DNA from: Companilactobacillus heilongjiangensis
Lineage (GTDB): Bacteria > Bacillota > Bacilli > Lactobacillales > Lactobacillaceae
Length of the DNA stretch: 64,000 nt
Direction of reading: 5' to 3'
Assembly: GCF_000831645.3 (NCBI RefSeq)
Contig: NZ_CP012559.1
Coordinates: 2,542,001 to 2,606,000 of the forward strand
Shown: one piece after another, positions 483-57,402 of the stretch
How the letters are laid out: each line of letters starts with the position of its first letter
How positions within the stretch are numbered: the first letter of the stretch is position 1
The notes under the pieces: generated by a model
The model's input: the letters and a program-made list of their open reading frames with translations, nothing else
Told to the model about the DNA's origin: nothing
The model's database searches: none
Translations under genes and position numbers: made by a program

Positions 483-560
483 GTCGAGAGGTGAAAGATA
501 GCCTGCTGTTGGACCAGTGTTCCCATAGCAGACGAAAATCACTTGTAACCGGAGGCGGCA
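483..560 (+). repeat. Cloverleaf repeat copy 1, internally deleted
   Basis: The right arm (CCCATAGCAGACGAAAATCA, then a GGAGGCGGCA end) is that of the full repeats, and a decayed left arm (GCCTGCTGTTGGACC) is present, but the three internal hairpins are missing. It sits between the two phosphatase paralogs and looks like a deletion derivative. Confidence 0.6.
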
Positions 561-605
561 GTAGTAAACTAGAACCACAAACATTGAGGAGGATATTTTT
601 TTATA

Positions 606-1265
606 ATGGCAAAATATCAAATTTACCTAGTTCGTCACGGACGTACTTGGTTTAACAAATACAATAAAATGCAAGGTTGGTCCGATACTCCCCTTGCCCC
701 AGAAGGAGTCGAAGTCGCTAAGAAAGCAGCACATGCTTTGAAAGACGTCGACTTTGCGGCCGCATTTTCTTCAGATGCCAGACGAGCAATCGATACTTGC
801 AAATTAATTGTGGATGAAAATATCAACCACGATAAAATCACACCTCAAAAATTAATGGAGTTTCGTGAAGAATTCTACGGTTATTACGAGGGTATGAATT
901 CTCCCGAAGCTTGGTTCATGGTCGGTGAACCCCACGGAGCCAAGAGTTTCGCAGAAATTATTGCAAAGTATGGTATGGACGCCACAAAAGACTTCATGAA
1001 AGAAGCCGATCCATTCCACGATGCCGAAAACGCTGAAGAATATTGGAACCGTGTTAACAAAGGCTTCGAAAAACTCGATGAAATTGCCAAAGATGGCGAC
1101 AAAATTCTCTTAGTTTCACACGGAACAACAATTCGTTCAATCACAGACCGTTATAACGATGGTAACTTTGACGTAACGGTAAGTCCTAGAAATTCTAGTT
1201 TAACAATGATGACACGTGATAACGGTGAAAACAAGGTAACAAGTTACAATCAATTATTAGATTAA
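606..1265 (+). CDS. Histidine phosphatase family protein (phosphoglycerate mutase-like)
   Basis: A complete 219-residue cytosolic protein. It starts with the family signature LVRHGRTWFNK (residues 8-18; phospho-accepting His in RHG) and has the second catalytic histidine in LLVSHGTTI near residue 176. A GAGGAGG-type Shine-Dalgarno lies 9-12 bases before the ATG. The family hydrolyses or transfers phosphate on small metabolites; members of this size in lactobacilli are usually annotated only at family level, and I cannot assign a substrate. It is the downstream member of a tandem pair. A rho-independent terminator and a cloverleaf repeat follow. Confidence 0.9.
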   Translation: MAKYQIYLVRHGRTWFNKYNKMQGWSDTPLAPEGVEVAKKAAHALKDVDFAAAFSSDARRAIDTCKLIVDENINHDKITPQKLMEFREEFYGYYEGMNSPEAWFMVGEPHGAKSFAEIIAKYGMDATKDFMKEADPFHDAENAEEYWNRVNKGFEKLDEIAKDGDKILLVSHGTTIRSITDRYNDGNFDVTVSPRNSSLTMMTRDNGENKVTSYNQLLD

Positions 1266-1273
1266 ATAAAACT

Positions 1274-1308
1274 GGACTCAAATCATAAACGATTTGGGCT
1301 CTTTTTTT
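1274..1308 (+). terminator. Rho-independent terminator after the phosphatase pair
   Basis: Stem GACTCAAATC / GATTTGGGCTC around a short loop, followed by a run of seven T. It begins within 10 bases of the stop codon. Confidence 0.8.
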
Positions 1309-1378
1309 ACGAATTTTATCCCAGATTTTGGGCTTGAATTCGGATTTAAAAATACCAAACATCCGATTCCACCCATTA

Positions 1379-1556
1379 GCCGGAGGTTGGCAGTGATTTT
1401 TGCCCGCTGTGGAGGTGGCGTTATGGCTTTAGCCATTACACCACAGGGCGACTTTGGAGACTTACCGGGTTTTGGTAAGGCTTCAAAGCGAGACTTGAGA
1501 CCTTGGCTCAAGTCGGTCCTCATAGCGGGCAAAAAATCACTGCCGACCTCCGGCGG
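1379..1556 (+). repeat. Cloverleaf repeat copy 2, forward
   Basis: Outer arms GGAGGTTGGCAGTGATTTTT and its complement close three hairpins: GGCGTTATGGC / GCCATTACACC, CTTACC / GGTAAG, and GACTTGAG / CTCAAGTC. The third stem differs in sequence from most copies yet still pairs perfectly. The rest of the 1557-1758 intergenic stretch is AT-rich with no gene seen. Confidence 0.9.
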
Positions 1557-1758
1557 CCCCTTTCTTAGATTACAATTAATTTAATAAAAAATTTTTTATT
1601 TTGAAATTTTTAAAATATATTTGTGAAAGCTGAATATTACGGCAATAAAGCATTTCAAAGATTCTAAAAATTAAATTAATTCTAATTTTTACTACCCATT
1701 TACCGAAAAATGCTATAAACTGTCATTAATCTCATTTTTGAAAGGGGAACTTTAACAT

Positions 1759-3453
1759 ATGTCTAATTCATTACAAGCTATCGAATCAAAGGCCTTTTAT
1801 ATTAATCCTAATCGATCAGTTGCCGTAATTAATTACAACGAAGAATACGTCCAAGATATTTTTCAGTTAATCAACAGCAAAGGTTTTCACAATTTAGTTG
1901 ACCTATACCTAGAAGAGAGTCAACTGGCTGTAACCAATAAAGTGGAAGGTTTACAAGCTGATACTTACATCGGCATCCTGAAAGCTGTCTTAATCGACGA
2001 TAAACCTACATATGAAAAATACGGTAATGAACAAATCTTAAAGAGTATTGAAGATTTCTACTCATATTACCGTTCATACTTTAGAGTTTCTCTCATCAAT
2101 AAGCACAGCAGTGCCATTGTTAAAGGCAATTTCATGAACATTGACAACCGTTTCAATGAAGTCGTGCTTCACCTTTATCGTGCTATTGAAGAAAAAATTC
2201 AAGGATTTTCTAATCGTACTTACCGTCAAATCAACGCTGGTACTAATGCCTGCGTCCTAACTCAATCAGTCAAATGGGCTGCTCCCCAAAATTACCAAGC
2301 TCTAGAAAGCATTCGTTTCTTGGATACAATCATGTTGCGTCCACCAATGATGATGCACACTAAGAGTAATAAACGTGAAGGTGTTTTCAGCGCTGTTAAA
2401 GACAATCCTATCGATAAATTCGATGGCGACCAAAAAGACTGGTACTGTTTCCCTGCTAAAATCGGTGAAAGTTTAGCATTTATCTACTTCCATCGCGACT
2501 ACTTTGTCAGTGGTATTGCTTTGGCCAACTTGTTTGAAGTCGCTGACGCTGACAGTATTGCCGGACAAAAACCTGATGAAATTATTCTCTTCGGTCTCAA
2601 AAAGACTGAGGGTGACGTCAGCCATTATTATCACGATGAAGAAAACGACATCTGGGTCGGTGAAGTTCCTTATAACGACAAGACAACTTACTTCGGTTAT
2701 ATGAAGAAGATGTGTCTAACCGTTCACAACTTACACATGATTTATGAAAGCCGTTTGCCAATCCACGGTTCAATGGTTAATATCAGTTTCTCAAATGGTA
2801 AAACTAAGTCAGTTGTCTTCTTCGGTGATTCTGGTGCCGGAAAGTCTGAATCAATTGAAGCATTACAAGAAGTCGCTGATGATAAAATCATCAACATTGA
2901 AACTATTTTCGACGATATGGGTAGCTTTGCTTTCGATGAAAAAGGCAATGTTTACGCCCAAGGTACTGAAACAGGTGCATTCGTTCGTTTGGATGACTTG
3001 AGCAGTTCCGTCGCCTTTAACAATATGGATCGTGGTATCTACTTGAACCCTGAGCTCAAGAATGCCCGTGTTATCTTGCCTGCCAACACTTACAAACATG
3101 TGGTCGAACATCATTCAATCGACATGTGGGTTTACGCAAATAACTACGATTCAGAGATTGGTTTACATCAATTCCCTGACGAAGATCACGCTAAGGCAAC
3201 ATTTATTGCTGGTAAACGTAAAGCCCTTGGGACAACTGATGAAGTTGGTATGAGTACAACATTCTTCGCTAACCCATTCGGCCCTGTTCAAGAAGAAGAA
3301 AAAACTCGTCCTATCATTGATAAAGTCTTCAACAAGCTCTATCAAGATAAGGTTTATGTTGGCGAAATTTATACTCACCTTGGGTATGACAAGTCAAAAG
3401 ACAGTCTTCAAGAATCAGCTAAAGAACTACTATCTGAATTAATGAATAATTAA
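1759..3453 (+). CDS. PEPCK/HPr-kinase-like P-loop protein
   Basis: A 564-residue protein with a clear P-loop, FFGDSGAGKSES (about residues 355-366), of the form shared by HPr kinase (GDSGxGKSE) and, more loosely, PEP carboxykinase. A downstream acidic segment, ETIFDDMG, and a late RPIID/VGEIYTHLG region resemble the PEPCK-like C-terminal kinase domain. Lactobacilli often carry a protein of this size annotated as phosphoenolpyruvate carboxykinase. The N-terminal half (residues 1-330) is not one I can name. I therefore call it PEPCK-like and leave the reaction open: it could be a true decarboxylating kinase or a kinase of unknown substrate. An AAAGGGGAA Shine-Dalgarno precedes the ATG. The gene stands alone and ends at a hairpin repeat. 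Confidence 0.75.
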   Translation: MSNSLQAIESKAFYINPNRSVAVINYNEEYVQDIFQLINSKGFHNLVDLYLEESQLAVTNKVEGLQADTYIGILKAVLIDDKPTYEKYGNEQILKSIEDFYSYYRSYFRVSLINKHSSAIVKGNFMNIDNRFNEVVLHLYRAIEEKIQGFSNRTYRQINAGTNACVLTQSVKWAAPQNYQALESIRFLDTIMLRPPMMMHTKSNKREGVFSAVKDNPIDKFDGDQKDWYCFPAKIGESLAFIYFHRDYFVSGIALANLFEVADADSIAGQKPDEIILFGLKKTEGDVSHYYHDEENDIWVGEVPYNDKTTYFGYMKKMCLTVHNLHMIYESRLPIHGSMVNISFSNGKTKSVVFFGDSGAGKSESIEALQEVADDKIINIETIFDDMGSFAFDEKGNVYAQGTETGAFVRLDDLSSSVAFNNMDRGIYLNPELKNARVILPANTYKHVVEHHSIDMWVYANNYDSEIGLHQFPDEDHAKATFIAGKRKALGTTDEVGMSTTFFANPFGPVQEEEKTRPIIDKVFNKLYQDKVYVGEIYTHLGYDKSKDSLQESAKELLSELMNN

Positions 3454-3458
3454 AAAAA

Positions 3459-6087: not shown

Positions 6088-6130
6088 TCGCTTTAATCCC
6101 CCTATTTTATTTAATTTATCATAACATTTT

Positions 6131-6312
6131 GCCGCTTCCGGTTGCGAGAGATTCCACCTAATGTGGGACCGGTGCGAGCCAAGGTCTCGCGCCTCGATTT
6201 TGAGCTTCGCAAAAAACGCGAATCTCAAAATACGTCCGTGCTGTAAGAACGGAAAACCACCGTTCTAACACCACATCCACAACGGGTAGAATCTCTCGAA
6301 ACCTCCAGCTAA
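6131..6312 (-). repeat. Cloverleaf repeat copy 3, reverse
   Basis: Begins with GCCGCTTCCGG and ends with CCTCCAGCTA. Its first hairpin has an exchanged stem (TAAGAACGG / CCGTTCTAA). It lies just upstream of the CoA-disulfide reductase. Together with copy 4 it brackets the deacylase gene. Confidence 0.85.
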
Positions 6313-10514: not shown

Positions 10515-10644
10515 TGTTTGTTGGCAAAAAAATAGAGCATTGCTGCCCTGATTTTTTATAAAGTTTAATGATACCAACAAAGTTAGCGGTTACAATTTTC
10601 TGAAATTTTTTACTCTAATTATCGCTTAAAGATTTTTTAAATAT

Positions 10645-10825
10645 GCCGTTTCCAGAGCTGAGAGTATTCATCTGCTGCGCGGCACGGCTCGAGCCAAGGT
10701 ACGGTCTCGATCCTCGGTTGAAGCCTTTCCAAAAACCGGAAAGTCTCCAACACGTCCGGTGGTGTAATCGCTAAAGCGATAACGCCACTTTCGCTGCTGA
10801 TGAATACTCTCAGCTCTTCCAACTA
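10645..10825 (-). repeat. Cloverleaf repeat copy 5, reverse (pairs with copy 6)
   Basis: Starts GCCGTTTCCAGAGCTGAGAG and ends CTCTTCCAACTAG. The first hairpin is GTAATCGC / GCGATAAC, a compensatory change from GTAATGGC / GCCATTAC. The spacer to copy 6 is 178 bp of AT-rich sequence with no gene seen. Confidence 0.92.
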
Positions 10826-11003
10826 GTTTGTTTGATAATTTGACGATTGATTAAAAACTTCAGATTTAACCCTTAATTTATTTCTACAAAAGTTAAACGA
10901 CTCCAATCAGAGCTCCAATCTATTTAATACATTTCAATTTATATTGTGTCCTAAAAACTACCATCAAACAAAATATCAGAATATATATATTCCAAAACAA
11001 AAA

Positions 11004-11178
11004 GCCGGAGGGTGTCGATAATGTAGTCCGCTGTGCAGGTGGTGTAATGGCTTTAGCCATTACACCACGGGGCGACTTTGGAGACTTACCGAACTTTGGT
11101 AAGGCTTCAAAGCGAGACTTGAGACCTTGGCTCAAGTCGGTCCCCATAGCGGAACTACATTATTGACGCCCTCCGGCG
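11004..11178 (+). repeat. Cloverleaf repeat copy 6, forward
   Basis: Outer arms GCCGGAGGGTGTCGATAATG and CATTATTGACGCCCTCCGGC pair perfectly, though the arm sequence differs from other copies. Internal hairpins are as in copy 2. The right end is 12 bp from the stop codon of the NhaC gene. Confidence 0.92.
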
Positions 11179-11189
11179 TCCAGAGACAC

Positions 11190-16653: not shown

Positions 16654-16850
16654 TAGTCGGAAGAGCTGGGAAATATTTGTGTGCCGTGGTAGTGGTATAA
16701 GTACGGAAGGAATTTTCCGTACTTATACCACCGGACGTGTTTGGAGACTTGACGAACTGTGTCAAGGCTTCAAACCGAGGTTCGAGACCGCATTTTGGCT
16801 CGGACCGTTCCGCACAGCTTGAGAATATTTCCCAGCTCTGGAGACGGCAG
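16654..16850 (+). repeat. Cloverleaf repeat copy 9, forward
   Basis: The reverse complement of copy 7 with few differences. Those in the first hairpin are mostly compensatory (GGTATAAGTACGGAA / TTCCGTACTTATACC). Its right end is 10 bp from the stop codon of the BceB-type permease. Confidence 0.93.
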
Positions 16851-23669: not shown

Positions 23670-24521
23670 TTATTTATCTCGCAATTCGTAGAGCTCTTTA
23701 GTCAAACTGATACTTCTATCTCGCACCATTTCAGCAATGTTTTGCTTATCAACAAATTCAATATTCTTCCGTCTCAAGAAAGAAATAATCGTCGATAACA
23801 TTTGGCGTTCCTTTGACTGGAGCCAATAATACTGCCGCAAGTCTAAATAGATAGTTTGATCATCCTTAGTTGTAATAATAAAATAGAAATTTTCACGTAT
23901 ATACTGACCTAAATTGGGCGTATAGAATCCAAATATTATAACTGTTGATTTGGGATTAAACTCAAACAAACCTAGTTTTATTTCAATACTCTTTATCTGT
24001 TGATAAGTAACGTATTTAGTTTTTCTAGTATGAGATAAAACTTTTAGTGGAATTGTTATTTCATCCCAACTATTATATTTATCCTTAAAATCGTCAGTAT
24101 AAGTAATCCCTTTTTTACCCAGAGACCAGTAAGTATAATAACGTTTAAAATCAAAAGGTGTCAGGAAAACCAGCATAAAATACGCTACTGTGAATCCAAG
24201 AATAGCCATACAAAAATTTTGGGATTCCGTGTATATCAGTACCCCAAGGATAAACGTGAACCATAAAAATAACAACGGCCAACGATTTTTGGGTTTTCCA
24301 TAGTCAAACGGAAAATGTAAATACGGTTCACCTGTAATCAACTCATCCAGTGAAATATCCAATAGTCCACTCAAGGAAATCAAGTTATTGATACTTGGCA
24401 AATTTTCGCCAGTTTCCCATTTTGAAATTGATTGCCGAGAAATACTTAATGCTTCAGCCAATTGCAGCTGCGACAATTCATTTCTCTTCCGATATTTAAC
24501 AATATTATCTGATAATGACAT
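23670..24521 (-). CDS. XRE-type HTH regulator fused to membrane and PH-like tail (1)
   Basis: A 283-residue protein. Residues 1-60 are a Cro/C1 helix-turn-helix (LSQLQLAEALSISRQSISKW), followed by the linker SLDELITGEPYLHF, two transmembrane helices (about 85-120), and a soluble tail with YWSLGKKGITYTDD and TKDDQTIYLDLRQYYW. The tail matches the two-helix proteins of this region. A membrane-tethered repressor that senses the envelope is a reasonable inference. I chose the ATG at 24521, which has GGGGGAA upstream. Near-duplicate of the next upstream gene; the last 45 residues are almost identical, suggesting gene conversion. Confidence 0.82.
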   Translation of the reverse strand: MSLSDNIVKYRKRNELSQLQLAEALSISRQSISKWETGENLPSINNLISLSGLLDISLDELITGEPYLHFPFDYGKPKNRWPLLFLWFTFILGVLIYTESQNFCMAILGFTVAYFMLVFLTPFDFKRYYTYWSLGKKGITYTDDFKDKYNSWDEITIPLKVLSHTRKTKYVTYQQIKSIEIKLGLFEFNPKSTVIIFGFYTPNLGQYIRENFYFIITTKDDQTIYLDLRQYYWLQSKERQMLSTIISFLRRKNIEFVDKQNIAEMVRDRSISLTKELYELRDK

Positions 24522-24579
24522 CCCGTTCACTTCCCCCACACCTAAATTAAGGAAAACACGCTCACTCTCAATATATTAT

Positions 24580-25437
24580 TTACTCTGCTTTATCTCGCAA
24601 CTCATAGAGCTCTTTAGTCAGACTGATACTTCTATCTCGCACCATTTCAGCAATGTTTTGCTTATCAACAAATTCAATATTCTTCCGTCTCAAGAAAGAA
24701 ATAATTGTCGATAACATTTGACGTTCCTTTGACCGTGGCCAATAATACTGTCGCAAGTCTAAATAGATGGTTTGATCATCTTTAGTTGTAATAATCAGAT
24801 GAAAAGCCTCATGCATATACTGTCCTTCAGTTGGTGCATAACCACCTTTAGGCGCAATCGCCGAGTTAGGGCTGACCTTGAATAGGTCCAATTTAACTTC
24901 AATCTTCTTTATTTGTTGATAGGAAACATACTTAGTTTTACGTGCATGAAATAACGTTTTAATGGGAATAATTATTTCGTCTAAGCTGTTATAAACATCT
25001 TTATCATTAGCCACATAGGTAATTCCCGACTTATCCAATGTCCAATACGTGTAGTAGCGTTTGAAATCATACGGATAAAACAGAATTGCCATCACATAGG
25101 CTGCAAACGCTCCAAAAAAGGGCGCATAAAAGCGATGAAATCCTGAGAAAACCAATCCTCCCAAAATAACCACCACTACTAAAAAGAAAACCGGCCAACG
25201 ATTCCTGGGCTTACCATAATTGAATGGAAAATGTAGATATGGCTCACCTGTTATTAGCTCATCCAAAGAAATATCCAACAATCCACTCAACGAAATCAAA
25301 TTATCAATACTAGGTAGATTTTCCCCAGTCTCCCACTTTGAAATCGATTGTCGGGAGATACTCAATGCTTCAGCTAATTGTTCTTGTGACAATTGATTTT
25401 TATTTCGATATTTAACAATATTATCTGCTAATGACAT
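24580..25437 (-). CDS. XRE-type HTH regulator fused to membrane and PH-like tail (2)
   Basis: A 285-residue tandem paralog of the previous protein, with the same HTH (SRQSISKWETGENLPS), two central helices and the same C-terminal domain. The middle has diverged, while HTH and C-terminus remain close to identical. The ATG at 25437 has GAGGGAG upstream; the longer open frame reads into the promoter. A TATAAT -10 lies at 25462-25467 on the minus strand. It probably controls itself and the downstream genes; targets are unknown. Confidence 0.82.
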   Translation of the reverse strand: MSLADNIVKYRNKNQLSQEQLAEALSISRQSISKWETGENLPSIDNLISLSGLLDISLDELITGEPYLHFPFNYGKPRNRWPVFFLVVVVILGGLVFSGFHRFYAPFFGAFAAYVMAILFYPYDFKRYYTYWTLDKSGITYVANDKDVYNSLDEIIIPIKTLFHARKTKYVSYQQIKKIEVKLDLFKVSPNSAIAPKGGYAPTEGQYMHEAFHLIITTKDDQTIYLDLRQYYWPRSKERQMLSTIISFLRRKNIEFVDKQNIAEMVRDRSISLTKELYELRDKAE

Positions 25438-25461
25438 CGTTTTCACTCCCTCTATGACTAA

Positions 25462-25467
25462 ATTATA
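25462..25467 (-). promoter_or_regulatory. -10 box of the XRE operon
   Basis: Perfect TATAAT on the minus strand, 25 bases before the start codon. The -35 is weak (GCAATT-like at 17 bases), fitting an autoregulated promoter. Confidence 0.5.
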
Positions 25468-25507
25468 CGTTCTAAGCTCAGAAAATTGCACGCACTTTCT
25501 GCTTGCG

Positions 25508-26247: not shown

Positions 26248-26295
26248 TTTGGTCACTTCTTTCCTATAAGTTACCCATATGATAAGGTCCAACTC

Positions 26296-26356
26296 AAAAA
26301 AAGGAGGATTTCAGTGCTAGACAAACTGTCTAGTACTGAAATCCTCCTTTTATTTT
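26296..26356. terminator. Strong bidirectional terminator
   Basis: Arms AGGAGGATTTCAGT and ACTGAAATCCTCCT, extended by CTAGACA / TGTCTAG around a three-base loop, with A- and T-runs at the ends. It ends the gene at 26355-26543. Confidence 0.85.
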
Positions 26357-26543
26357 ATGAAAAATACTTCGAAAAGTTAAAAATTGAACCAATCAATGAA
26401 ACCGTACCAACAACAACCATCGTCAGGGAAAGAATTCCTTGAACTGTACAGATGCTATTCCACGGGAAATCAACTAAAAATAGTAATCCCACAATGCCTA
26501 TCCAAAAGTATTTTCCTTTATAAAAATCACTATTGAATCTCAC
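26355..26543 (-). CDS. 62-residue membrane protein under a LytTR-type box
   Basis: A GTG start at 26543 with AAGAAGGGA upstream encodes 62 residues with two hydrophobic segments (about 12-26 and 33-55) and an aromatic N-terminus (NSDFYKGKYFW). There is no double-glycine leader, so it is not an ordinary class II bacteriocin precursor. Immunity peptide, membrane sensor or inducer are all open. The important clue is its promoter: two TACGTTNAT repeats 12 bp apart, then a -10 32 bp further, exactly the layout of plantaricin-type quorum-sensing promoters. It therefore probably answers to the LytTR regulator at 35118-35867. Confidence 0.65.
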   Translation of the reverse strand: MRFNSDFYKGKYFWIGIVGLLFLVDFPWNSICTVQGILSLTMVVVGTVSLIGSIFNFSKYFS

Positions 26544-28229: not shown

Positions 28230-28936
28230 TTTGTAACACTTCCTTCGTAAACCTGTTCATAGTACTCCTCAACACCCAAGTGATATTTCTCTTGAATGTC
28301 CTCAACTGAACTAACTTGATAAATTGTTTCATCCTTAATAATAATCACATCATCCAATAGACTAGCAATCTCTGTGACGTAATGATCACTGATGACAATC
28401 GTTGAATCATCAGTCTTCCAACGGATAATACTACTGATAATTTTCTTACGTGACATACTATCGATACCGCTCAAAGGCTCATCTAATAAGTAGAGTTTAG
28501 TGTCGCGAGATAGTGTCAAAGCAATAATCAGCTTGCCTCTTGTACCAGTTGAAAGTGAAGATATTCGTTTGCCCTCGTCCAATCCTAGATATTCAGCAAT
28601 TTCCAAGTACTTTCCTTGAACAAAATCAGGATAGACGTTCTCGTAAAACTTAACGATATCGCCAATCTTGGTATTCTTAGAAAAACCGCCTAGTTGATCA
28701 CTAAAACTGACATTTTGTTTAATTTCACGTTTCTTACTAGCACCATTGACCGTTATAACGCCTTCAGGCAATGAATTTACCCCAGCAATCAAACGCATCA
28801 AAGTGGTTTTACCAGCACCATTTTCACCAAGTAAGCCAACAATTTTGCCACTGGTTAAGTTCAAATTGACGTCTTTTAAAATGGCTTTATTATTCTTCTT
28901 ATAATTCAAATTCTTAATTCTTAACAAATTTGTCAT
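28226..28936 (-). CDS. ABC transporter ATPase (second of operon)
   Basis: A 236-residue ATPase with Walker A GENGAGKTTL, an atypical signature LSTGTRGKLIIALTLSRD in place of LSGGQ, Walker B LYLLDEPLSGIDSMSR and a switch-region ISDHYVTEI. This signature is common in YtrB-like ATPases. Partner permease immediately downstream. Confidence 0.9.
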   Translation of the reverse strand: MTNLLRIKNLNYKKNNKAILKDVNLNLTSGKIVGLLGENGAGKTTLMRLIAGVNSLPEGVITVNGASKKREIKQNVSFSDQLGGFSKNTKIGDIVKFYENVYPDFVQGKYLEIAEYLGLDEGKRISSLSTGTRGKLIIALTLSRDTKLYLLDEPLSGIDSMSRKKIISSIIRWKTDDSTIVISDHYVTEIASLLDDVIIIKDETIYQVSSVEDIQEKYHLGVEEYYEQVYEGSVTK

Positions 28937-28951
28937 AATGACGCCCCTTTC

Positions 28952-29704
28952 CTAATTAGTTGTTTCTGACTTTTTATTTAATAAATAAAGATCAATAACT
29001 GTGAATATTACAATCCAGATAACCATCATTGCCATGCCCGAGTACAACACTCGTGAAACGGCACCGAAACTGCTGTCTAAATCATTGATTCCCATGATTC
29101 TCAAAACATTACTTGTAATAAAGTTGAAAGGTATCATAAACAACCAGACAATGATTACTGAAACGATAGCTTTGACTAAACTTTGACTTCTAAATGGCAG
29201 AAAATCATTAACCCAATCGCTCAACAAATGTAACGCCGTTATTCCAGTCCAAATGACGATGATTCCTAATATAAATGCCACTACAACTTCTGCTTTGAAA
29301 TAATACTGTTGAACTGAATTGAAACTTCTGACCATAAAGCGATCATAATCGTTAGGAAAAATTGCGACAGAAGCCACATAAACAACAAATTCCCCAACCA
29401 TCAAATATACTAATCCGAAAAATGATGTCATCATATTGCTTGAATAAAGCGTTGCATCACTGATTGGTATCAAACGATACTTATCGTTAACGTAAACCAG
29501 CTCATTTGCTCTTGCCATTGCAAAAATTCCAACGGCCATAGCAATAAAAACACCACCAGTAAAACTAGTTATTCCAGGATTTGTTCGGAAGGAATTCCAG
29601 ATTTGAGTAACTAATATGATAAGTATGTGAATTCCTAAAATCCAGCTGATCATTTTAAATTTGTTTTTAAGTAATCCTTTACTGACACGACCTAAGCTAC
29701 TCAT
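28952..29704 (-). CDS. ABC-2-like permease subunit (first)
   Basis: A 250-residue six-helix protein, paralog of the two permeases downstream (DKYRLIPISDATLYSSNMMTS). The chosen ATG (29702-29704) lies inside the end of the upstream ATPase gene, overlapping it by eight bases, with AAGGGGGT upstream. Pairs with the ATPase at 29697-30425. Confidence 0.85.
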   Translation of the reverse strand: MSSLGRVSKGLLKNKFKMISWILGIHILIILVTQIWNSFRTNPGITSFTGGVFIAMAVGIFAMARANELVYVNDKYRLIPISDATLYSSNMMTSFFGLVYLMVGEFVVYVASVAIFPNDYDRFMVRSFNSVQQYYFKAEVVVAFILGIIVIWTGITALHLLSDWVNDFLPFRSQSLVKAIVSVIIVWLFMIPFNFITSNVLRIMGINDLDSSFGAVSRVLYSGMAMMVIWIVIFTVIDLYLLNKKSETTN

Positions 29705-30425
29705 CGTCCAGACCCCCTTCATAAACTTTTTCATAATAATCTTCAATTCCCAAGTGATATTTAGCTTGAATATCTTCCACAGGACTAACTTGATAAACTG
29801 TTTGGTCCTTTAAAATTACGACATCATCCAAGAGACTCGAAATTTCTTTCACATAGTGCGAACTGATGATGATTGTTGAATCGTCACCCTTCCACTGAAT
29901 AATACTTTTGATGATTTTCTTACGAGCCATAATATCGACTCCATTCAGCGGTTCATCTAATAAATAAAGTGGCACCTGGCGCGCCAAGGTTAAAGCAATC
30001 TCCAGTTTTTCACCCGTACCAGTTGAGAGATTGACTAGCTTGTCATCACAAGGGATTTCTAGAAACTTAGCCATTGCCTGATATTTTTCAAATGAAAAAT
30101 CAGGATAAATGTCGATATAAAATTTCACGACATCTTTAACTTTAGTATTTTTTTCGCCTGCACCTTTGTTAAAACTGGTTAATGAGTAAGTTGCACTGAC
30201 ACATGATTTGCGTGCTGCTTTACTATCGACTCCGGCAACCGCAATCTGACCAGAAGTCTTAGCATTCACACCGGAGATCAAACGCATCAGCGTCGTTTTT
30301 CCGGCTCCATTAGCGCCAAGTAAACCAATAATCTTGCCATTATCAAGACTAAGATTAATGTCTTTTAAAATTAACTTATTATTCTTTTTATAATTTAAAG
30401 AGTTAATTTCCAATACTTTACTCAT
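29697..30425 (-). CDS. ABC transporter ATPase (first of operon)
   Basis: A 242-residue ATPase with Walker A GANGAGKTTL, signature LSTGTGEKLEIALTLARQ, Walker B LYLLDEPLNGVD and ISSHYVKEI. About half identical to the second ATPase, so the operon holds a duplicated ATPase-permease module. It overlaps the regulator gene by eight bases. Confidence 0.9.
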   Translation of the reverse strand: MSKVLEINSLNYKKNNKLILKDINLSLDNGKIIGLLGANGAGKTTLMRLISGVNAKTSGQIAVAGVDSKAARKSCVSATYSLTSFNKGAGEKNTKVKDVVKFYIDIYPDFSFEKYQAMAKFLEIPCDDKLVNLSTGTGEKLEIALTLARQVPLYLLDEPLNGVDIMARKKIIKSIIQWKGDDSTIIISSHYVKEISSLLDDVVILKDQTVYQVSPVEDIQAKYHLGIEDYYEKVYEGGLDDE

Positions 30426-30795
30426 GATTTGCCTCCCGCTTTTTGACGTAGGTATTGAAGCTATTCATAATTTCGGTGTCATCCATATTCAATGAATGCA
30501 ATTTATCGTATGTTGCATCAAACATTTCACTGACGATATGTGCTTTTAATTTTTCCACAATACTGGTGTCTTCAGTCACAAAATTGCCTTTACCACGCTG
30601 CGGTATAATGACTTCTTCTTCAGTCATTTCCTTGAGCGATTTCTGAACGGTATTTGAATTAGCAGAAAATTGGACGGCCAACTGTCTTACTGAAGGCAGT
30701 TGTGATCCTAATTCATACTGATTGCTAATAATTTTGCGATACAAGATATCCTTGATTTGGAGGTAAATAGGTATGTTATCAATATATTCCATCAT
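30418..30795 (-). CDS. GntR-family regulator, YtrA type
   Basis: A 125-residue protein with an N-terminal winged helix (PIYLQIKDILYRKIISNQYELGSQLPSVRQLA, about 9-40, given in parts; NSNTVQKSLKEM recognition helix) and only a short helical dimerisation tail, as in the YtrA subfamily. It is the first gene of its operon, so it most likely represses the operon until a membrane or cell-wall signal is met. Ends overlapping the first ATPase gene. Confidence 0.9.
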   Translation of the reverse strand: MMEYIDNIPIYLQIKDILYRKIISNQYELGSQLPSVRQLAVQFSANSNTVQKSLKEMTEEEVIIPQRGKGNFVTEDTSIVEKLKAHIVSEMFDATYDKLHSLNMDDTEIMNSFNTYVKKREANHE

Positions 30796-40521: not shown

Positions 40522-40702
40522 CTAGCCTCCGACTGGGAGTGATTTTCACCCGCTATGGAAGTGGCGTTATGGCTTTAGCCATTACACCACAGGACGTATT
40601 TTGAGACGCGGGTTTCGGCTCAAAATCGAGGGTCGAGACCGCACTGTGGCTCGAGCCGGTCCCATAGCAGGGCGAAAAATCACTCCCAGTCGGAGGCGGC
40701 AT
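40522..40702 (+). repeat. Cloverleaf repeat copy 17, forward, solo
   Basis: Outer arms CTCCGACTGGGAGTGATTTT / AAAATCACTCCCAGTCGGAG pair perfectly. The right end GGCATATTTCAATA has the extended form seen in copies 13, 16 and 23. Confidence 0.93.
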
Positions 40703-48055: not shown

Positions 48056-48255
48056 TTGTATTTGTCTCTTTCATAAGCTTTTCTTCCTTTTATTTTCATT
48101 TTGAAATTCTTCTATATATCGGGGGGGAGGGGATATATTTTGAAAAAATCGATTGGTTTTTAAATTTTAATTATCCTTTTAAAATGGTGCCTTCATAGTC
48201 ATTTGAGTCACCTCTTCGTTTCTTGACTATGGTTATATAATAGCTGGAAAATATG
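48056..48255 (-). ncRNA. C-rich-loop RNA family, unit A
   Basis: Minus-strand unit starting with the conserved TATTATATAACCATAGTCAA, then an AGAGGTGA ribosome-like site before a tiny ORF (48179-48202, MTMKAPF). A hairpin of seven pairs (48114-48120 / 48132-48138) then carries an 11-base loop of almost only C. The shared terminator ends it. The same order recurs at 48828-49255 and 54030-54345. Confidence 0.55.
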
Positions 48256-48327
48256 AAGTAATCGTTTGGAAAGTTAGAAAGAAATAGTAAATAAATGTGA
48301 AGAAAGAATGTTGTTCTGATTGTTCAC

Positions 48328-48680: not shown

Positions 48681-48818
48681 CCTAGCTTTCTGGTGCATTT
48701 GATTTCACCCGTTGTGAAAGTGGATTTGAGACTTTAGTTCTTACCCCACTGGACGAGCTTTGAGACGCAATTTTTGGCTCAAACTGGTCCCAGAACGGTC
48801 GAAAATGGCGGCTAGCTC
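48681..48818 (+). repeat. Cloverleaf repeat copy 19, forward, degenerate
   Basis: Keeps GATTTCACCC, the GAGCTTTGAGACGC hairpin and CTGGTCCCAGAACGG, but the third hairpin is deleted and the outer arms no longer match. Confidence 0.7.
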
Positions 48819-48860: not shown

Positions 48861-49255
48861 ATATTTACGGGGAATAAATATCGAATTGTTTTTAGGAAAT
48901 TAACTTTATATCTATAGGGGGGAGATATTAAAGTTTCATTTATATGTTTTATAAGGGGATTAAACTTTTTAAAAATAGATTATTTATATAGGGGTTTATT
49001 TCTATTCATGTTGTGTGAGTTATTTAAGAAATTAATTTTTACGGGGTTTTTCCAATTTCATCAGGTCACTTCTTTCAAAGTAGATTCTTCTATATCTTTT
49101 TAAGGGGGGAGATATAATTTTTAATTTTTGTTTATAAGGGATTTCAATATTTTAAGGGGATTAAATTAATTCATGTTATTCATTTTGGAAATCGATTGTT
49201 TGTACATCCGGTCACCTCTTTGTTCCTTTGTTATTTGACTATGGTTATATAATAA
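48828..49255 (-). ncRNA. C-rich-loop RNA family, units B and C
   Basis: Minus strand. The conserved start TTATTATATAACCATAGTCAA is followed by AGAGGTGA and a 13-codon ORF (49166-49207). Then come hairpins whose loops carry CCCC or CCCCCC: TTTAA/TTAAA at 49151-49165, TATATCT/AGATATA at 49091-49116. A second AAGTGACC-preceded ORF (49032-49061) follows, then ATATCT/AGATAT at 48908-48928 and the perfect 8-bp GATATTTA/TAAATATC at 48860-48882 with loop TTCCCCG. A terminator ends it. Confidence 0.6.
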
Positions 49256-49327
49256 CGGGAAATTATGAATATATAGTTGCCAAAGTACGAAGGAATTGAT
49301 AACAATGTATGAAGAATTTATGACTTT

Positions 49328-49513
49328 GCCGTCTCCAGAGAGGCGTAAGTATTCACCTGCTATGCGGACCGGGCCGAGCCACAGTGCGGTCTCGACCCTC
49401 GGTTTGAAGCCTTACCAAAGCCCGGTAAGTCTCCAAACTCGCCCGGTGGTGTAATGGCTAAAGCCATAACGCCACACCCACAGCGGGTGAATACTTACGC
49501 CTCTCTTCCAACT
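49328..49513 (-). repeat. Cloverleaf repeat copy 20, reverse (pairs with copy 21)
   Basis: Outer arms GAGAGGCGTAAGTATTCACC / GGTGAATACTTACGCCTCTC pair perfectly. The spacer of 257 bp to copy 21 is AT-rich, with C-runs on the plus strand near 49640-49660; no gene seen. Confidence 0.93.
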
Positions 49514-49770: not shown

Positions 49771-49952
49771 TAGCCTCCGCTTGCCAGTGATTTCAACCGC
49801 TGTGAAAGTGGAGTTAGAGCTTTAGCTCTAACTCCACAGGACGACTTTTGAGATTCGCGTACCTTGCGAAGCTCAAAATCGAGGGTCGAGACCGCCCTTT
49901 GGCTCGAGCCGGTCCCAGAGCGGTTGAAAATCACTGGCAAGCGGAGGCGGCA
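49771..49952 (+). repeat. Cloverleaf repeat copy 21, forward
   Basis: Outer arms CCTCCGCTTGCCAGTGATTT / AAATCACTGGCAAGCGGAGG. The second hairpin is the variant TTCGC / GCGAA. Confidence 0.93.
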
Positions 49953-53956: not shown

Positions 53957-54029
53957 GTTTACATCCTCGTAAGAAATATATTTTGCATGCATTTAATTCA
54001 ACACTTATTCTATCAAAAATTCTGCAGCA

Positions 54030-54052
54030 AAAAAGCCTGCTAATAAGCAGGC
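54030..54052 (-). terminator. Terminator of C-loop RNA unit D
   Basis: Minus strand: GCCTGC / GCAGGC around TTATTA, then TTTTTT. The T-run exists only in the minus direction, which fixes the direction of this RNA family. Confidence 0.8.
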
Positions 54053-54345
54053 CATCATGATATTCAATAGTAGGATAAATATCAACTTCTTTCTTTTGAA
54101 GATTAACTACGGGGGAATAGTAATCTTGAATTTAACTTCTTTATCTATTAGGGGGAGATATCTGAAGTTTAAGTTTATTTATAGGAGATTAAATTTTTAT
54201 TCGTATATATATGTTTTAAGGGGGTTATTTCTATTCATTAATTGTTTTCAATAATTGTTTTTTAAAGGGTTTGTTCTATTTGAAGCTTTATCTAATCATC
54301 CGTTCACCTCTTCCTCTATTTGACTATGTTTAAATAATAACGTTT
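54030..54345 (-). ncRNA. C-rich-loop RNA family, unit D
   Basis: Minus strand: ACGTTATTATTTAAACATAG start, AGAGGTGA, a three-codon ORF, then hairpins with CCCCC loops (ATCT/AGAT around 54143-54159; GATTACTA/TAGTTAATC at 54101-54125), then its own terminator. Corresponding blocks are alignable with unit B/C, including TGAATAGAAATAACCCC. Confidence 0.6.
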
Positions 54346-54394
54346 AAATACGAATAAATTTATAACAAAATATGAAGAATTGGTGAATTATTTT

Positions 54395-54571
54395 CCGTCT
54401 CCAGAGCTAAGAAGTATTCATCTGCTATGCGGACCGGGCCGAGCCAAGGTCTCGTCCCTCGGTTTGAAGGCTTTCCAAAGACCGGAAAGTCTCCAAACTC
54501 GCCCGGTGGTGTAAGAGCTAAAGCTCTAACGCCACACCCACAGCGGGTGAATACTTCTTAGCTCTTCCGTC
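54395..54571 (-). repeat. Cloverleaf repeat copy 22, reverse (pairs with copy 23)
   Basis: Outer arms GAGCTAAGAAGTATTCATC / GGTGAATACTTCTTAGCTC. The first hairpin is GTAAGAGC / GCTCTAAC. Confidence 0.93.
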
Positions 54572-54736
54572 TCTTTTGTTACTGCAGTGGATATGAAATA
54601 GTCTGTATATCTTATCAAATTGATTAAATCCTCTGATCTTCCTAGCTTTTATAGGAATTCAAAGATATATAGAAACACCTCTAAATTCCATCATATATAT
54701 CGAAGAAAATAGAAGAGCAAAATTCTTTTTAAAACC

Positions 54737-54922
54737 CTAGCTTCCGGTTTCCAGTTATGGAGGCTGCTGTGGAAGTGGAGTTAGGACGAGCGTTCTTCTC
54801 GTTCTTACTCCACAGGACGACTTTTGAGACGCGGTTTTCGGCTCAAAATCGAGGGTCGAGACCGCACTTCGGCTCGAGCCGGTCCCATAGCTGAACTCCA
54901 TAACTGGAAACCGGAAGTGGCA
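54737..54922 (+). repeat. Cloverleaf repeat copy 23, forward
   Basis: Outer arms CTTCCGGTTTCCAGTTATGG / CCATAACTGGAAACCGGAAG. The first hairpin is lengthened, GTTAGGACGAG / CTCGTTCTTAC. The right end GGCATCCTTCAATA has the extended form. Confidence 0.93.
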
Positions 54923-54937
54923 TCCTTCAATAACATA

Positions 54938-54973
54938 CAAAAAAAGGACTGCCCTTTCTTTCGGACAGTCCAA
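54938..54973 (-). terminator. Terminator of the NlpC/P60 gene
   Basis: Minus strand: GGACTGTCC / GGGCAGTCC stem followed by TTTTTTT. Confidence 0.85.
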
Positions 54974-55001
54974 CGTGAATGATTTTAATTTTGAATGTGT
55001 A

Positions 55002-55715
55002 TTATAGAACTTTAACAGCGAATGAAGGCATGAAGTAGCCTGAGATTGTTGAAATCTTAACTGATTCGCCTGGTTGTGGTGCGGCGATGTATTGGTTGTT
55101 ACCTAAGTAGATACCTACGTGGTAAGTTGAACCTTTGCCACCCCAGAATAATAGATCTCCAGCTGATGCTTGAGAAACTGCTTCTTGTGTACCGGCACTT
55201 TCTTGAGCTACTGTATATGAACCAATGCTCTTACCAGTTGCTTGTTGGTATACGTATGATGTGAAACCTGAACAGTCGAAACCTGAAGGTGTCTTACCAC
55301 CCCATACATATGGTGTACCGATATATTTCTTAGCAGTATTTACAACACTGTCAGAAGTTGAAGCTTTGTCTGATGATGAAGCTGATTCTGTAACAGCAGC
55401 CATATCAGTAACGTCACTAGCGTTAACCCATTCACTTGCGCCTACTAGGTACCATGTGTTTCCTTGATCGTCTTTAACAGCTTGACCAACGGCCCAGGCT
55501 GTATTAGCTTGCAATGCACGGCCAGAACTCTTGCCATTTGATGATGGTGTTGTGTAAAGTGCTGACATTGTCTTTGTACGTACAGCAGAAGGTGCATCAG
55601 ATAGAACTTGTGAAGCAGCCTTTGTTGTAGAAGCATTTGATAGGCCTAAACCTGTAACTGCTAAAGCGGCAGCAGCTGTAAATGAAATAAGACTCTTTTT
55701 AACGTTAGTATTCAA
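55002..55715 (-). CDS. Secreted NlpC/P60 endopeptidase
   Basis: A 237-residue secreted peptidoglycan hydrolase. Signal peptide MNTNVKKSLISF... with cleavage near AAS; a middle SH3-like segment (ALYTTPSSNGKSSGRALQ, NTWYLVGASEWV); a linker rich in Ser/Ala; and the NlpC/P60 domain with catalytic Cys in GFDCSGFTSYVY and His in YHVGIYLG. It cuts D-Glu-diamino acid bonds in stem peptides. I chose the TTG at 55715: GGGGGAT stands seven bases upstream and the signal peptide starts there. A longer frame from a TTG at 55790 adds a lysine-rich stretch without a ribosome site. Confidence 0.85.
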   Translation of the reverse strand: MNTNVKKSLISFTAAAALAVTGLGLSNASTTKAASQVLSDAPSAVRTKTMSALYTTPSSNGKSSGRALQANTAWAVGQAVKDDQGNTWYLVGASEWVNASDVTDMAAVTESASSSDKASTSDSVVNTAKKYIGTPYVWGGKTPSGFDCSGFTSYVYQQATGKSIGSYTVAQESAGTQEAVSQASAGDLLFWGGKGSTYHVGIYLGNNQYIAAPQPGESVKISTISGYFMPSFAVKVL

Positions 55716-55868
55716 AATTGAAATCCCCCGTAATGGTTTGTTTTTTTTATTTTTTAAGTTTTTCTTAATTATTAATTTCTTATCACTCAACGTTGACTAT
55801 AATACGCTCTGAATATTGCAGAAATGTTACAGCAATTGTATAAGAATGTTACACTTTGTTGTTCACAA

Positions 55869-55917
55869 AGTAATAAAGCTGTAACCACATACATATCAGT
55901 GGTTACAGCTTTATTGT
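55869..55917. terminator. Long hairpin after the kinase-like gene
   Basis: AATAAAGCTGTAACCAC / GTGGTTACAGCTTTATT with a ten-base loop, bordered by TTCACAA / TTGTGAA. Probably the terminator of the minus-strand gene at 55929. Confidence 0.7.
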
Positions 55918-55928
55918 GAAAAACTCAT

Positions 55929-56486
55929 TTACTTGATTTTTTCGATATTCAGTATTTTGTTAACGCTTTCCTTAGTTATTTCTATGTTATTATTAGTAAT
56001 TTTATAACATTTACCCCTTAATTCACTCGGAATATTCAAATCTCGATGGAATTCGTCACTATTAATTCGCGCCTTTAATCGATTAATATCATCCCCGCGA
56101 CCAGCCAAACGTTTCGTCACAGTATCCAAATCTACTTCAAGAAAAATGACGACTGCCTGATTGCCATACTTCTCTTTATAGGAAATTGCACCTTTAGTAT
56201 CGACCACAATACTGGCCGCATCATACTTTTCCCAAGTTTTATTGAGACTTTCTTCAGAAGATCCATACCAATTGCCACTAAATTCGACTCTTTCGAGATA
56301 ATGATTCTTCAAAAAGCTATCTTTCGTCTCAAAATGATAGTCTATGCCGTCTTTTTCGCCCACACGTGGTAATCTAGTAGTATGAGTTATGACACTCGGT
56401 ATATGATAGGTATCTTGCAAATATTTACTAATTGTTGTTTTCCCAGTTCCACTTGCTCCAGTGATAACAATAATTTTTTTATCCAT
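55929..56486 (-). CDS. Guanylate kinase-like P-loop kinase
   Basis: A 185-residue protein: Walker A GASGTGKTT (residues 10-18), the GMP-binding-type segment THTTRLPRVGEKDGIDYHF (about 34-52), EFSGNWYG, and a lid region with KRLAGRGDD. The guanylate kinase fold is clear. A separate housekeeping Gmk (usually about 205 residues) is expected elsewhere, so this short form may act on another nucleotide. Monocistronic. Confidence 0.8.
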   Translation of the reverse strand: MDKKIIVITGASGTGKTTISKYLQDTYHIPSVITHTTRLPRVGEKDGIDYHFETKDSFLKNHYLERVEFSGNWYGSSEESLNKTWEKYDAASIVVDTKGAISYKEKYGNQAVVIFLEVDLDTVTKRLAGRGDDINRLKARINSDEFHRDLNIPSELRGKCYKITNNNIEITKESVNKILNIEKIK

Positions 56487-56569
56487 TATAGGACTCCTAT
56501 GTTTGAAATATTTCTTCTACTATATTATTATACTAGTCTGTTAAGTAATTAATCCGAGGAGAATTAGAT

Positions 56570-56779
56570 ATGAAAATAGAAGACTTAAAAGTTGGCACTG
56601 TTTACGATTGCTCCGTTGATGAAGATATGGATTACCCATTCCAAGGAAAAGTTGAGAAAGTTTACGAGCACTCAGCTTTGATGGAGATTGTTAAGAATGA
56701 TCCTAAGGACAATACTAATAAAACGGAATTAAATAACAAGATTGTTGTAAGTATCAAGAAAATCAAAAAAGCTAAATAA
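56570..56779 (+). CDS. DUF2187-like small protein
   Basis: A 69-residue acidic/basic protein with KVGTVYDCSV and GKVEKVYEHSALMEIV, a small beta-barrel (KOW-like) pattern, and a lysine-rich end. Such proteins are common single genes in lactobacilli; function unknown. GAGGAGAA precedes the ATG. A terminator (56791-56831) follows. Confidence 0.75.
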   Translation: MKIEDLKVGTVYDCSVDEDMDYPFQGKVEKVYEHSALMEIVKNDPKDNTNKTELNNKIVVSIKKIKKAK

Positions 56780-56790
56780 TTAATCTCATA

Positions 56791-56831
56791 AAAAGAAGCC
56801 GGTCATTAAGTTGATCAGCTTCTTTTTTTTA
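56791..56831. terminator. Terminator of the DUF2187-like gene
   Basis: AAAAAGAAGC / GCTTCTTTTT with a longer, weakly paired interior and a run of eight T. Confidence 0.75.
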
Positions 56832-56848
56832 CTCTTCGTTATATTAGT

Positions 56849-57033
56849 CTGCCGTTTCCAGAGCTGAGAGTATTCATCTGTTGCGCGGCACGGTCCGAGC
56901 CAAAGTGCGGTCTCGGGCCTCGGTTGAAGACTTTCCAAAAATCGGAAAGTCTCCAACACGTCCGGTGGTGTAATTGCTAAAGCAATAACGCCACTTTCGC
57001 TACGGATAAATACTCTCAGCTCTTCCAACTAAT
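56849..57033 (-). repeat. Cloverleaf repeat copy 24, reverse (pairs with copy 25)
   Basis: GCCGTTTCCAGAGCTGAGAG left end. The first hairpin is GTAATTGC / GCAATAAC, again a paired substitution. The 187 bp spacer is AT-rich with no gene seen. Confidence 0.93.
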
Positions 57034-57220
57034 TTAATTTTTTAATTTAAAAACATCCCTTAATTTGCGGCTAGATTTTTTTGATTATGGTTTAATTATT
57101 TACATCATTGATGTAATGAATAGAGAAGACAATTATCAGACTCTCTGAACCATCCGTATTCAATTAAATATCGAATAATCGGATTCCTACCTTCAATTAC
57201 ACATCAATAAACTAAAACCC

Positions 57221-57402
57221 TAGCCTCCGGTCGTCAGTGATTTTTGCCTGCCATGGAGGTGGCGTTATTGCTTTAGCAATTACACCACGGGACGAGCTTG
57301 GAGACTTGCGGTTTTTGCAAGTCCTCAAATCGAGGTTCGAGACCGCCCTTTGGCTCGGACCGGTCCCCATAGCGGCAAAAAATCACTGACGGCCGGGGCG
57401 GC
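57221..57402 (+). repeat. Cloverleaf repeat copy 25, forward
   Basis: Outer arms CGGTCGTCAGTGATTTTTG / AAAAAATCACTGACGGCCG. The first hairpin is GTTATTGC / GCAATTAC, the same change as in its partner copy 24. The right end is 16 bp from the next stop codon. Confidence 0.92.

What the first reader, a model, noticed from the sequence alone, without database searches (positions are those of the whole stretch)
483..57402. 25-copy family of about 180-bp cloverleaf-folding intergenic repeats with compensatory stem changes
Seen: 25 intergenic copies (including degenerate ones) share the layout outer stem - hairpin 1 - hairpin 2 - hairpin 3 - outer stem, about 7% of the window. Stem sequences vary while pairing is kept. 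Hairpin 1: GTAATGGC/GCCATTAC, GTAATCGC/GCGATAAC, GTAATTGC/GCAATAAC, GTAAGAGC/GCTCTAAC. Hairpin 2: CTTACC/GGTAAG, CTTTCC/GGAAAG, CTCGC/GCGAG, CTTGC/GCAAG, CTTGAC/GTCAAG. Hairpin 3: GACTTGAG/CTCAAGTC and TCGAG/CTCGA. The paired substitutions argue for selection on a folded RNA or extruded DNA, not for passive decay. I know no described family of this shape. It could be a MITE-like element, an RNA-processing or stability module, or a chromosome-organising site.
Basis: seen in the sequence. Interest (0 to 1): 0.88.

Follow-up and report, generated by a model that had tools for sequence, protein, structure and literature searches.

The report
Paired cloverleaf DNA repeats of lactobacilli
Many lactobacillus genomes, this one included, carry large numbers of a short DNA element that can fold into a cloverleaf, most of them set in facing pairs between genes, and comparison of two species suggests that evolution keeps the fold intact, which points to an undescribed family that spreads like a tiny transposon and may do a structural job for the chromosome.

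Summary
In detail: 23 full or near-full copies in the window plus remnants, covariation far above two controls, no Rfam match at curated scores. The host is a Companilactobacillus. Its genome should hold about 600 copies (86 in 400 sampled kb). Of 40 genera of the family, 12 carry matches, Levilactobacillus, Lactiplantibacillus and Secundilactobacillus among them.

(2) Outside one fixed T-G column, G-U departures do not exceed A-C ones, which speaks for pairing in DNA rather than in one RNA strand. (3) In 14 orthologous copies of two Levilactobacillus genomes, stems differ at 5%, loops at 11%, flanks at 20%: stems look selected in place. (4) One young subfamily is a 295-bp MITE with about 18-bp inverted repeats and 8-10-bp target duplications.

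I found no transposase and no earlier description. A host function is inferred, not shown.

The parts
519..583 (-). fragment of one copy (left part only)
   Evidence: profile match E 4.7e-6
1378..1558 (-). cloverleaf copy, single
   Evidence: 173.3 bits with model R1
6130..6310 (+). cloverleaf copy; faces 7053 across a 742-bp gap that holds a gene with a tRNA-editing domain
   Evidence: 141.4 bits; gap; Pfam PF04073
7053..7230 (-). cloverleaf copy, 3 bp from the end of a gene
   Evidence: 167.4 bits; context
10644..10824 (+). cloverleaf copy, left arm of a facing pair
   Evidence: 189.9 bits
11003..11181 (-). cloverleaf copy, right arm of the pair with 10644
   Evidence: 167.5 bits
13005..13198 (+). 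subfamily B copy (194-nt core); left flank and right end carry the inverted repeat GGTGCTAGTT / AACTAGCACC
   Evidence: 176.6 bits
16519..16563 (+). weak remnant, possibly the decayed partner of 16655
   Evidence: profile E 0.93; sequence read
16655..16849 (-). subfamily B copy; the site lacks it in G002, G006 and G013
   Evidence: 177.6 bits
19591..19779 (+). left arm of a facing pair in a divergent gene gap; the whole pair is absent in G013
   Evidence: 170.8 bits
19955..20136 (-). right arm of the pair with 19591
   Evidence: 188.1 bits
21747..21929 (-). single copy, present at the same site in G006, absent in G002
   Evidence: 185.3 bits
25840..26018 (-). single copy; about 290 bp inserted relative to G002 and G006
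   Evidence: 183.6 bits
31940..32120 (-). single copy
   Evidence: 185.5 bits
37692..37870 (+). left arm of a facing pair; G002 and G006 have only a + copy here, of another subfamily
   Evidence: 173.9 bits
38063..38243 (-). right arm of the pair with 37692, not in G002 or G006
   Evidence: 196.2 bits
40524..40701 (-). single copy; G002 and G006 have a copy at the same position
   Evidence: 160.7 bits
48328..48510 (+). left arm of a facing pair
   Evidence: 173 bits
48684..48850 (-). decayed right arm of the pair with 48328
   Evidence: profile E 1.1e-27; 39.9 bits for 48703-48804
49327..49513 (+). left arm of a facing pair; the pair is absent in G002 and G006
   Evidence: 192.7 bits
49772..49952 (-). 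right arm of the pair with 49327
   Evidence: 171.1 bits
54393..54572 (+). left arm of a facing pair; G006 also has a facing pair here
   Evidence: 185.4 bits
54739..54922 (-). right arm of the pair with 54393
   Evidence: 140 bits
56850..57030 (+). left arm of a facing pair
   Evidence: 185.4 bits
57222..57403 (-). right arm of the pair with 56850
   Evidence: 173.4 bits

Best explanation
This is a family of interspersed, non-coding DNA elements of Lactobacillaceae. Each unit is an about 180-bp sequence whose single strands can fold into a cloverleaf: a long outer stem of fast-changing sequence that closes three hairpins, followed in this genus by an AT-rich tail. SHOWN: high copy number, covariation, facing pairs, wide range, and MITE-type mobility with target duplication in one subfamily. 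SHOWN BY COMPARISON, in limited data: stems change more slowly than their flanks at fixed sites, and departures from pairing show no RNA-type preference for G-U. INFERRED: the element spreads in trans by a transposase that I did not find. A second copy then settles, independently, in facing orientation beside an older one. The folded DNA is afterwards kept because it works as a structural or protein-binding site between genes, in the manner of the BIME pairs of enterobacteria.
For: Copy number: 109 copies in 464 kb; 86 in the 400 kb outside the window, about 600 per genome if the sample is fair. Facing pairs: 32 of 35 neighbours under 600 bp in the own genome and 17 of 18 under 700 bp in other genera (one of the 17 is the orthologue of another). 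Arms independent: identity 0.690 within 30 pairs versus 0.716 between pairs. At the site of window 26263-26362, G002 and G006 share a - copy (86% identical) but carry + copies of different subfamilies, both facing it. DNA-level pairing: without the fixed T-G column, G-T 65 and A-C 95 of 5727 cells (rows); 18 and 40 of 2207, and 44 and 69 of 2870. Constraint in place: over 14 orthologous copies, summed from the per-site rows, stems differ at 85 of 1678 bases (5.1%), loops at 90 of 787 (11.4%), flanking intergenic DNA at 514 of 2530 (20.3%); stems are lower than flanks at 14 of 14 sites and lower than loops at 11 of 14. Mobility: subfamily B units with inverted repeats ACGYRTGGTGCTAGTTRA; 9 of 16 units have a direct repeat outside these ends above the 95% null, e.g. 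ATGAAAAAT, TTCTACTAT, TAGGTTATT. Many presence/absence differences between relatives. Derivatives of 91 to 228 bp lack hairpins, as expected if the hairpins extrude in DNA.
Against: Terminal inverted repeats were recognised only in subfamily B: in a blind test 1 of 120 copies exceeded the 99% null, and pairs taken as units show neither a target duplication (1 of 47 above the 95% null) nor a clear outer inverted repeat (5 of 47). No transposase-like frame lay between subfamily-B repeats in six stretches looked at by eye. Several Companilactobacillus genomes gave no match (G007, G013, G014, G015, G019, with strict filters), so the element is not essential. One column is a fixed T-G pair (66 of 107 copies), which a folded RNA would tolerate better than DNA. 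The constraint test rests on one species pair, on copies that the model found in both genomes, on predicted folds, and on flank windows that overlap between arms of a pair; with three syntenic but undetected sites added, the figures become 9.9%, 15.6% and 20.6%. At that distance changes that break a pair outnumber paired two-sided changes, 61 to 4.
Confidence: 0.5

Rival explanations
1. Purely selfish MITEs. The stems are needed only for transposition, and facing pairs reflect a target preference for the tail of a resident copy. Inserted copies have no host role, and arms are kept complementary by template switching within the hairpin.
For: Subfamily B is a textbook MITE. Copy number varies widely between species. 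Left ends crowd just behind genes (21 of 46 within 15 bp of a gene's 3' end) and keep away from 5' ends (1 of 54), as tolerated insertions would. Paired two-sided changes are common between more distant relatives, 48 versus 29 that break a pair (G002/G006, 6 copies: one cut at a stretch end, one only 67% identical and perhaps not a true orthologue).
Against: Stems change about four times more slowly than flanks, at 14 of 14 fixed sites, which neither neutral decay nor unbiased template switching predicts. Between close relatives paired two-sided changes are few (4 versus 61), so one-step correction is not the rule.
Confidence: 0.27
2. A structured RNA: a 3'-end processing, stability or termination module, with a facing pair serving the two neighbouring transcripts. 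In this genus a T-rich tail follows the stem, as in an intrinsic terminator.
For: In Companilactobacillus the right flank starts mostly A-A/G-T-T-T-A-T-T; left ends often abut the 3' end of a gene; strong folds on either strand; one column is a fixed T-G, a G-U in RNA.
Against: No G-U excess elsewhere although tRNAs show 12 G-U and 0 A-C (7 tRNAs). Direction is not coupled to gene direction, 46 versus 54. The T-rich tail is not conserved in other genera. Pairs also sit between divergent genes, 6 of 28 paired groups with known context.
Confidence: 0.15
3. A REP/BIME family moved by a REP-associated tyrosine transposase (RAYT) acting on single-stranded hairpins.
For: Inverted dimers with variable spacers and high copy number, as reported for REP families (passages of PMC3733652). 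Type I copies have CGTC close to the left foot of the palindrome. The own genome holds two Y1 transposases.
Against: Subfamily B makes 8-10-bp target duplications, which IS200/IS605-type enzymes do not (recalled). The unit is about 180 bp with three inner hairpins, not 20-40 bp.
Confidence: 0.07

Closest known systems
REP elements and BIMEs (PMC3733652, passages seen)
   Same: Interspersed palindromes in high copy, often as inverted dimers with variable spacers.
   Different: Ours are about 180 bp with four stems, have no Y1 transposase in three copy-rich genomes, and occur in Lactobacillaceae; 'lactobacill' and 'firmicutes' do not occur in that paper's main text.
Bacterial MITEs (review PMC10969869; only searched for six terms, none found)
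   Same: Subfamily B has terminal inverted repeats, target duplication and no gene.
   Different: For the other copies I detected no terminal repeats or duplication; the cloverleaf body looks constrained after insertion.
Pneumococcal BOX, RUP and SPRITE repeats (PMC3049150, passages seen)
   Same: Intergenic folded repeats in Lactobacillales.
   Different: [quoted passage not shown] ours is GC-rich relative to its genome (about 0.53, window 0.373), fixed in layout and mostly paired face to face. No sequence comparison was made.

Membership tests
MITE | terminal inverted repeats | tested here: met
   Met for subfamily B only; not detected for the other copies (1 of 120 above the 99% null).
MITE | target site duplication | tested here: met
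   Met for subfamily B: 9 of 16 units above the 95% null, about 0.8 expected, 8-10 bp by eye; for facing pairs as units not met (1 of 47 above the 95% null).
MITE | related autonomous element with the same ends | tested here: inconclusive
   Exact inverted repeats occur in 7 of 36 genomes of the genus. Frames were listed for four of six fetched candidate stretches and two own-genome stretches; none looks like a transposase by eye, no profile scan was made.
REP/BIME | inverted dimers | tested here: met
   49 of 53 close neighbours face each other.
REP/BIME | GTAG or CGTC tag at one foot of the palindrome | tested here: inconclusive
   CGTC lies near the left foot in type I copies; type II copies mostly read CGCC there.
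REP/BIME | cognate Y1 tyrosine transposase (RAYT) | tested here: not met
   PF01797 absent in copy-rich G002, G006 and G009; two matches in G000.
Rfam RNA families | match at curated score | tested here: not met
   0 matches in the window; in three loci at E up to 1, two matches far below their curated scores and outside the copies.
Structured RNA | G-U tolerated more than A-C on the sense strand | tested here: not met
   small tRNA control; exception: one fixed T-G column.
BOX/RUP/SPRITE | sequence match | not tested
   No consensus of these was compared.

The most novel reading that the evidence does not exclude
The facing cloverleaf pairs are a genome-wide, host-maintained DNA-structure system of Lactobacillaceae: mobile in origin, but hundreds of sites per chromosome have become read by a host protein or topoisomerase as extruded four-stem junctions, setting local supercoiling or domain borders between genes.
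Probability: 0.3. Interest if true: 0.9.

Novelty: new variant of a known kind. Interest (0 to 1): 0.72.

Why it matters
The family covers about 4% of this chromosome by extrapolation (600 copies of 183 bp) and is dense in genera used in food, such as Lactiplantibacillus and Levilactobacillus, yet I found no description of it. It offers a case in which covariation, usually read as a sign of RNA, appears to be a matter of DNA folding. With many facing pairs in culturable strains, the old question of what paired palindromes do for a bacterial chromosome becomes testable.

Tried and rejected
Rejected or unsupported ideas. Y1 transposase as resident mobiliser: not correlated. A gene between the facing copies 6130/7053 as transposase: it is a tRNA-editing domain. 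Pairs as one composite unit with its own duplication or outer repeats: no signal. Pairs made of two types by rule: 16 mixed of 29 typed pairs, 13.9 expected, p 0.34. Pairs as inverted duplications: arms not alike. Terminator-like hairpins before the left end: 2 of 103, control 0.021; T-runs in the left flank are enriched, 31 of 103 against 0.150. Autonomous parent between subfamily-B repeats: none seen (of the six stretches, L151 and L152 were not examined). Plasmid or phage carriage: one partial plasmid match in Limosilactobacillus reuteri and no phage match for window copy 38063; two copies from other genera gave no plasmid match. A purely one-step, templated origin of the compensations: not favoured, because pair-breaking changes prevail between close relatives.

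Limits. One search gave no rows and was rerun; the tRNA control was redone. In one search the structure string lost one bracket, so 56 pairs were counted. Counts are means of two directions. I dropped 12 antisense duplicate matches, and 2 rows each of A4 and A5; copies under 60 or 100 bits were left out of some tests as coded. Matches per genome are capped (150, 64, 6 or 106), and the first look of the genome search can miss weak copies: one search reports none for C. kimchii and C. paralimentarius, but one search found one weak copy in a stretch of each. Species of G000 was not confirmed.
Full report
CHECK OF THE OBSERVATION. Four seed copies found 23 full or near-full copies in the window on both strands, and a profile built from them found one further fragment and one weak remnant. 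The covariance model built from 22 of them finds the same 23. Copy 38063 folds at z -9.7 and -9.4 as RNA on its two strands, copy 49772 at -13.1 with DNA parameters. RNAalifold predicts 57 pairs, 35 with two-sided changes; four of five measures are far above shuffles and all are above slid partners, the fifth (further pair types) is reached by 36 of 500 shuffles. The structure is an outer stem of about 19 pairs of mostly variable sequence, a short inner stem, and three hairpins. Rfam has no match at curated scores.

WHO CARRIES IT. The RarA protein of the window is 93% identical to that of Companilactobacillus huachuanensis and C. nantensis. G006 has a contig of the same length as the C. nantensis record, and G010 gives the same match coordinates as the C. 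huachuanensis genome. The model found 150 matches in the own genome, which is the scoring cap. In 20 evenly spaced stretches of 20 kb it found 86 copies, which extrapolates to 600 per genome; counts per stretch ran from 0 to 10. Among relatives, 21 of 41 genomes had matches: 20 of 25 of this genus, the own genome included, and 1 of 16 of other families, with one weak match. Over the family, 103 of 397 genomes and 12 of 40 genera have matches. Named genomes (at most 106 scored each): 100 or more in four Levilactobacillus, three Lactiplantibacillus, C. huachuanensis, C. suantsaicola and Secundilactobacillus odoratitofui; 89 in Furfurilactobacillus milii and 87 in S. similis; 4 to 10 in C. formosensis, two other Secundilactobacillus and two Lacticaseibacillus; none in C. 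kimchii, C. paralimentarius, Paucilactobacillus wasatchensis, Lentilactobacillus diolivorans, Liquorilactobacillus oeni, Fructilactobacillus florum, Lactobacillus sp. ESL0246 and Enterococcus florum. For C. kimchii and C. paralimentarius one search did find one weak copy each in about 21 kb, so 'none' means none scored.

FACING PAIRS. Of 35 neighbouring copies less than 600 bp apart in the own genome, 32 face each other with 84-272 bp between the cores, 2 point apart and 1 is in tandem. In 16 stretches (290 kb) of six other genus groups, five of which had matches, 17 of 18 neighbours under 700 bp face each other; 13 of the stretches were chosen around strong matches, and two are orthologous. 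Arms of one pair are no more alike than arms of different pairs (0.690 and 0.716), so pairs are not duplications. Sites differ between relatives: at window 37692/38063, G002 and G006 have only a + copy, of another subfamily; at 26263-26362 the window has none, while G002 and G006 share a - copy (86% identical) and carry + copies of different subfamilies facing it. Loss is also seen: G387 keeps only the outer stem of a copy that is whole in G395.

DNA OR RNA. If one RNA strand were selected, G-U cells should exceed A-C cells on that strand. In 109 own copies there are 132 G-T or T-G and 96 A-C or C-A of 5834 cells, but one column is a fixed T-G (66 of 107 copies); without it the counts are 65 and 95 of 5727. 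In the relatives' alignment the raw counts are 42 and 40 of 2247, without the fixed column 18 and 40 of 2207; in other genera 59 and 69 of 2924, and 44 and 69 of 2870. Between orthologues, single changes give 16 G-T and 24 A-C. Seven tRNAs from fetched loci gave 12 G-U and no A-C of 157 pairs, a small control found by a program that itself expects tRNA pairing. The fixed T-G column is the one observation that fits RNA better. The direction of copies is independent of the direction of the gene at the left end, 46 to 54. In this genus a T-rich stretch follows the right end; in other genera it does not.

CONSTRAINT IN PLACE. G395 and G387 belong to genus group g29, as does G379, whose match coordinates equal those of a Levilactobacillus wangkuiensis record. 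Flanks of their copies are 83-99% identical. Of 24 copies of G395 in about 158 kb, 14 have an orthologue found by the model in G387. Summed over these 14, stems differ at 85 of 1678 bases, loops at 90 of 787, non-coding flanks at 514 of 2530; stems are lower than flanks at 14 of 14 sites and lower than loops at 11 of 14. Coding DNA and other elements in the same windows differ at 8.0% over all 17 sites. With three syntenic but undetected sites added, stems, loops and flanks stand at 9.9%, 15.6% and 20.6%. At this short distance, changes that break a pair (16 G-T, 24 A-C, 21 other) outnumber paired two-sided ones (4); between the more distant G002 and G006 (6 copies, one cut at a stretch end and one only 67% identical) paired two-sided changes lead, 48 to 29. 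This fits selection against mismatches followed by compensation, rather than one-step copying of one arm onto the other.

MOBILITY. Subfamily B (core about 195 nt) sits in a unit that is most often 295 bp long: inverted repeat ACGYRTGGTGCTAGTTRA, cloverleaf, about 100-bp tail, inverted repeat. Of 16 units, 9 have a direct repeat outside these ends above the 95% null, such as ATGAAAAAT, TTCTACTAT and TAGGTTATT; derivatives of 91-228 bp lack some or all hairpins. Two B copies reach 98.7% identity over 223 bases, so activity looks recent. The site at 16655 is empty in three relatives. For other subfamilies the ends are less clear: no terminal repeats above chance. No transposase was seen between subfamily-B ends (by eye), and Y1 transposases do not track copy number.

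LITERATURE. Ten searches of the open library gave no description of this family; three of them returned no paper at all because the terms were narrow, for the others I saw listings and starts of abstracts. I saw passages of PMC3733652 (REP dimers), PMC3049150 (pneumococcal repeats) and PMC2267715 (a survey of stem-loop families; the only lactobacillus named in its main text is L. johnsonii), and searched PMC10969869 (MITE review) for six terms without a hit. Papers outside that library were not searched.

VERDICT. A real, large set of interspersed DNA elements that reaches across Lactobacillaceae, MITE-like in origin in at least one lineage and BIME-like in arrangement, whose folded stems appear to be conserved in DNA. 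The host role is my inference.

Noticed in passing
L042-L048 (Companilactobacillus genomes G022, G008, G004, G023, G003, G012, G020): A second class of element lacks the first hairpin (motif GCTGGAACG ... GGCTGAG) but shares the ends and also forms facing pairs; in L034 a class-2 copy at 1122-1289 faces a class-1 copy at 1501-1686.
   Followed up: partly
window 1378-1558, 11003-11181, 40524-40701, 49772-49952, 54739-54922, 57222-57403: The tip of the outer stem, GCC-TCC-GGC, occurs in either orientation on the left or the right arm, so some copies pair to the very end and others do not.
   Followed up: no
window 48220-48280, 49232-49292, 54317-54377: A 61-bp promoter-like sequence (TTTGACTATG...TATAAT in two of them) recurs just outside three + copies.
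   Followed up: no
window 23673-25491 and 28242-30428: Two tandem gene duplications, with copies 916 and about 1480 bp apart at 72-89% identity.
   Followed up: no
L157: A contig filed as Furfurilactobacillus milii encodes a RarA 86% identical to that of the window, closer than its genus name suggests; the genome holds 89 model matches.
   Followed up: no
G395/G387 orthologues: L254 12340-12519 and the matching place in L261: G387 has lost all three hairpins of one copy and keeps an outer palindrome, with a T-A to A-T swap relative to G395.
   Followed up: partly
left flanks of copies in the own genome: T-runs (TTTTT) are twice as common in the 35 bases before the left end as in other intergenic DNA, 31 of 103 against 0.150; no A-run excess.
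   Followed up: no
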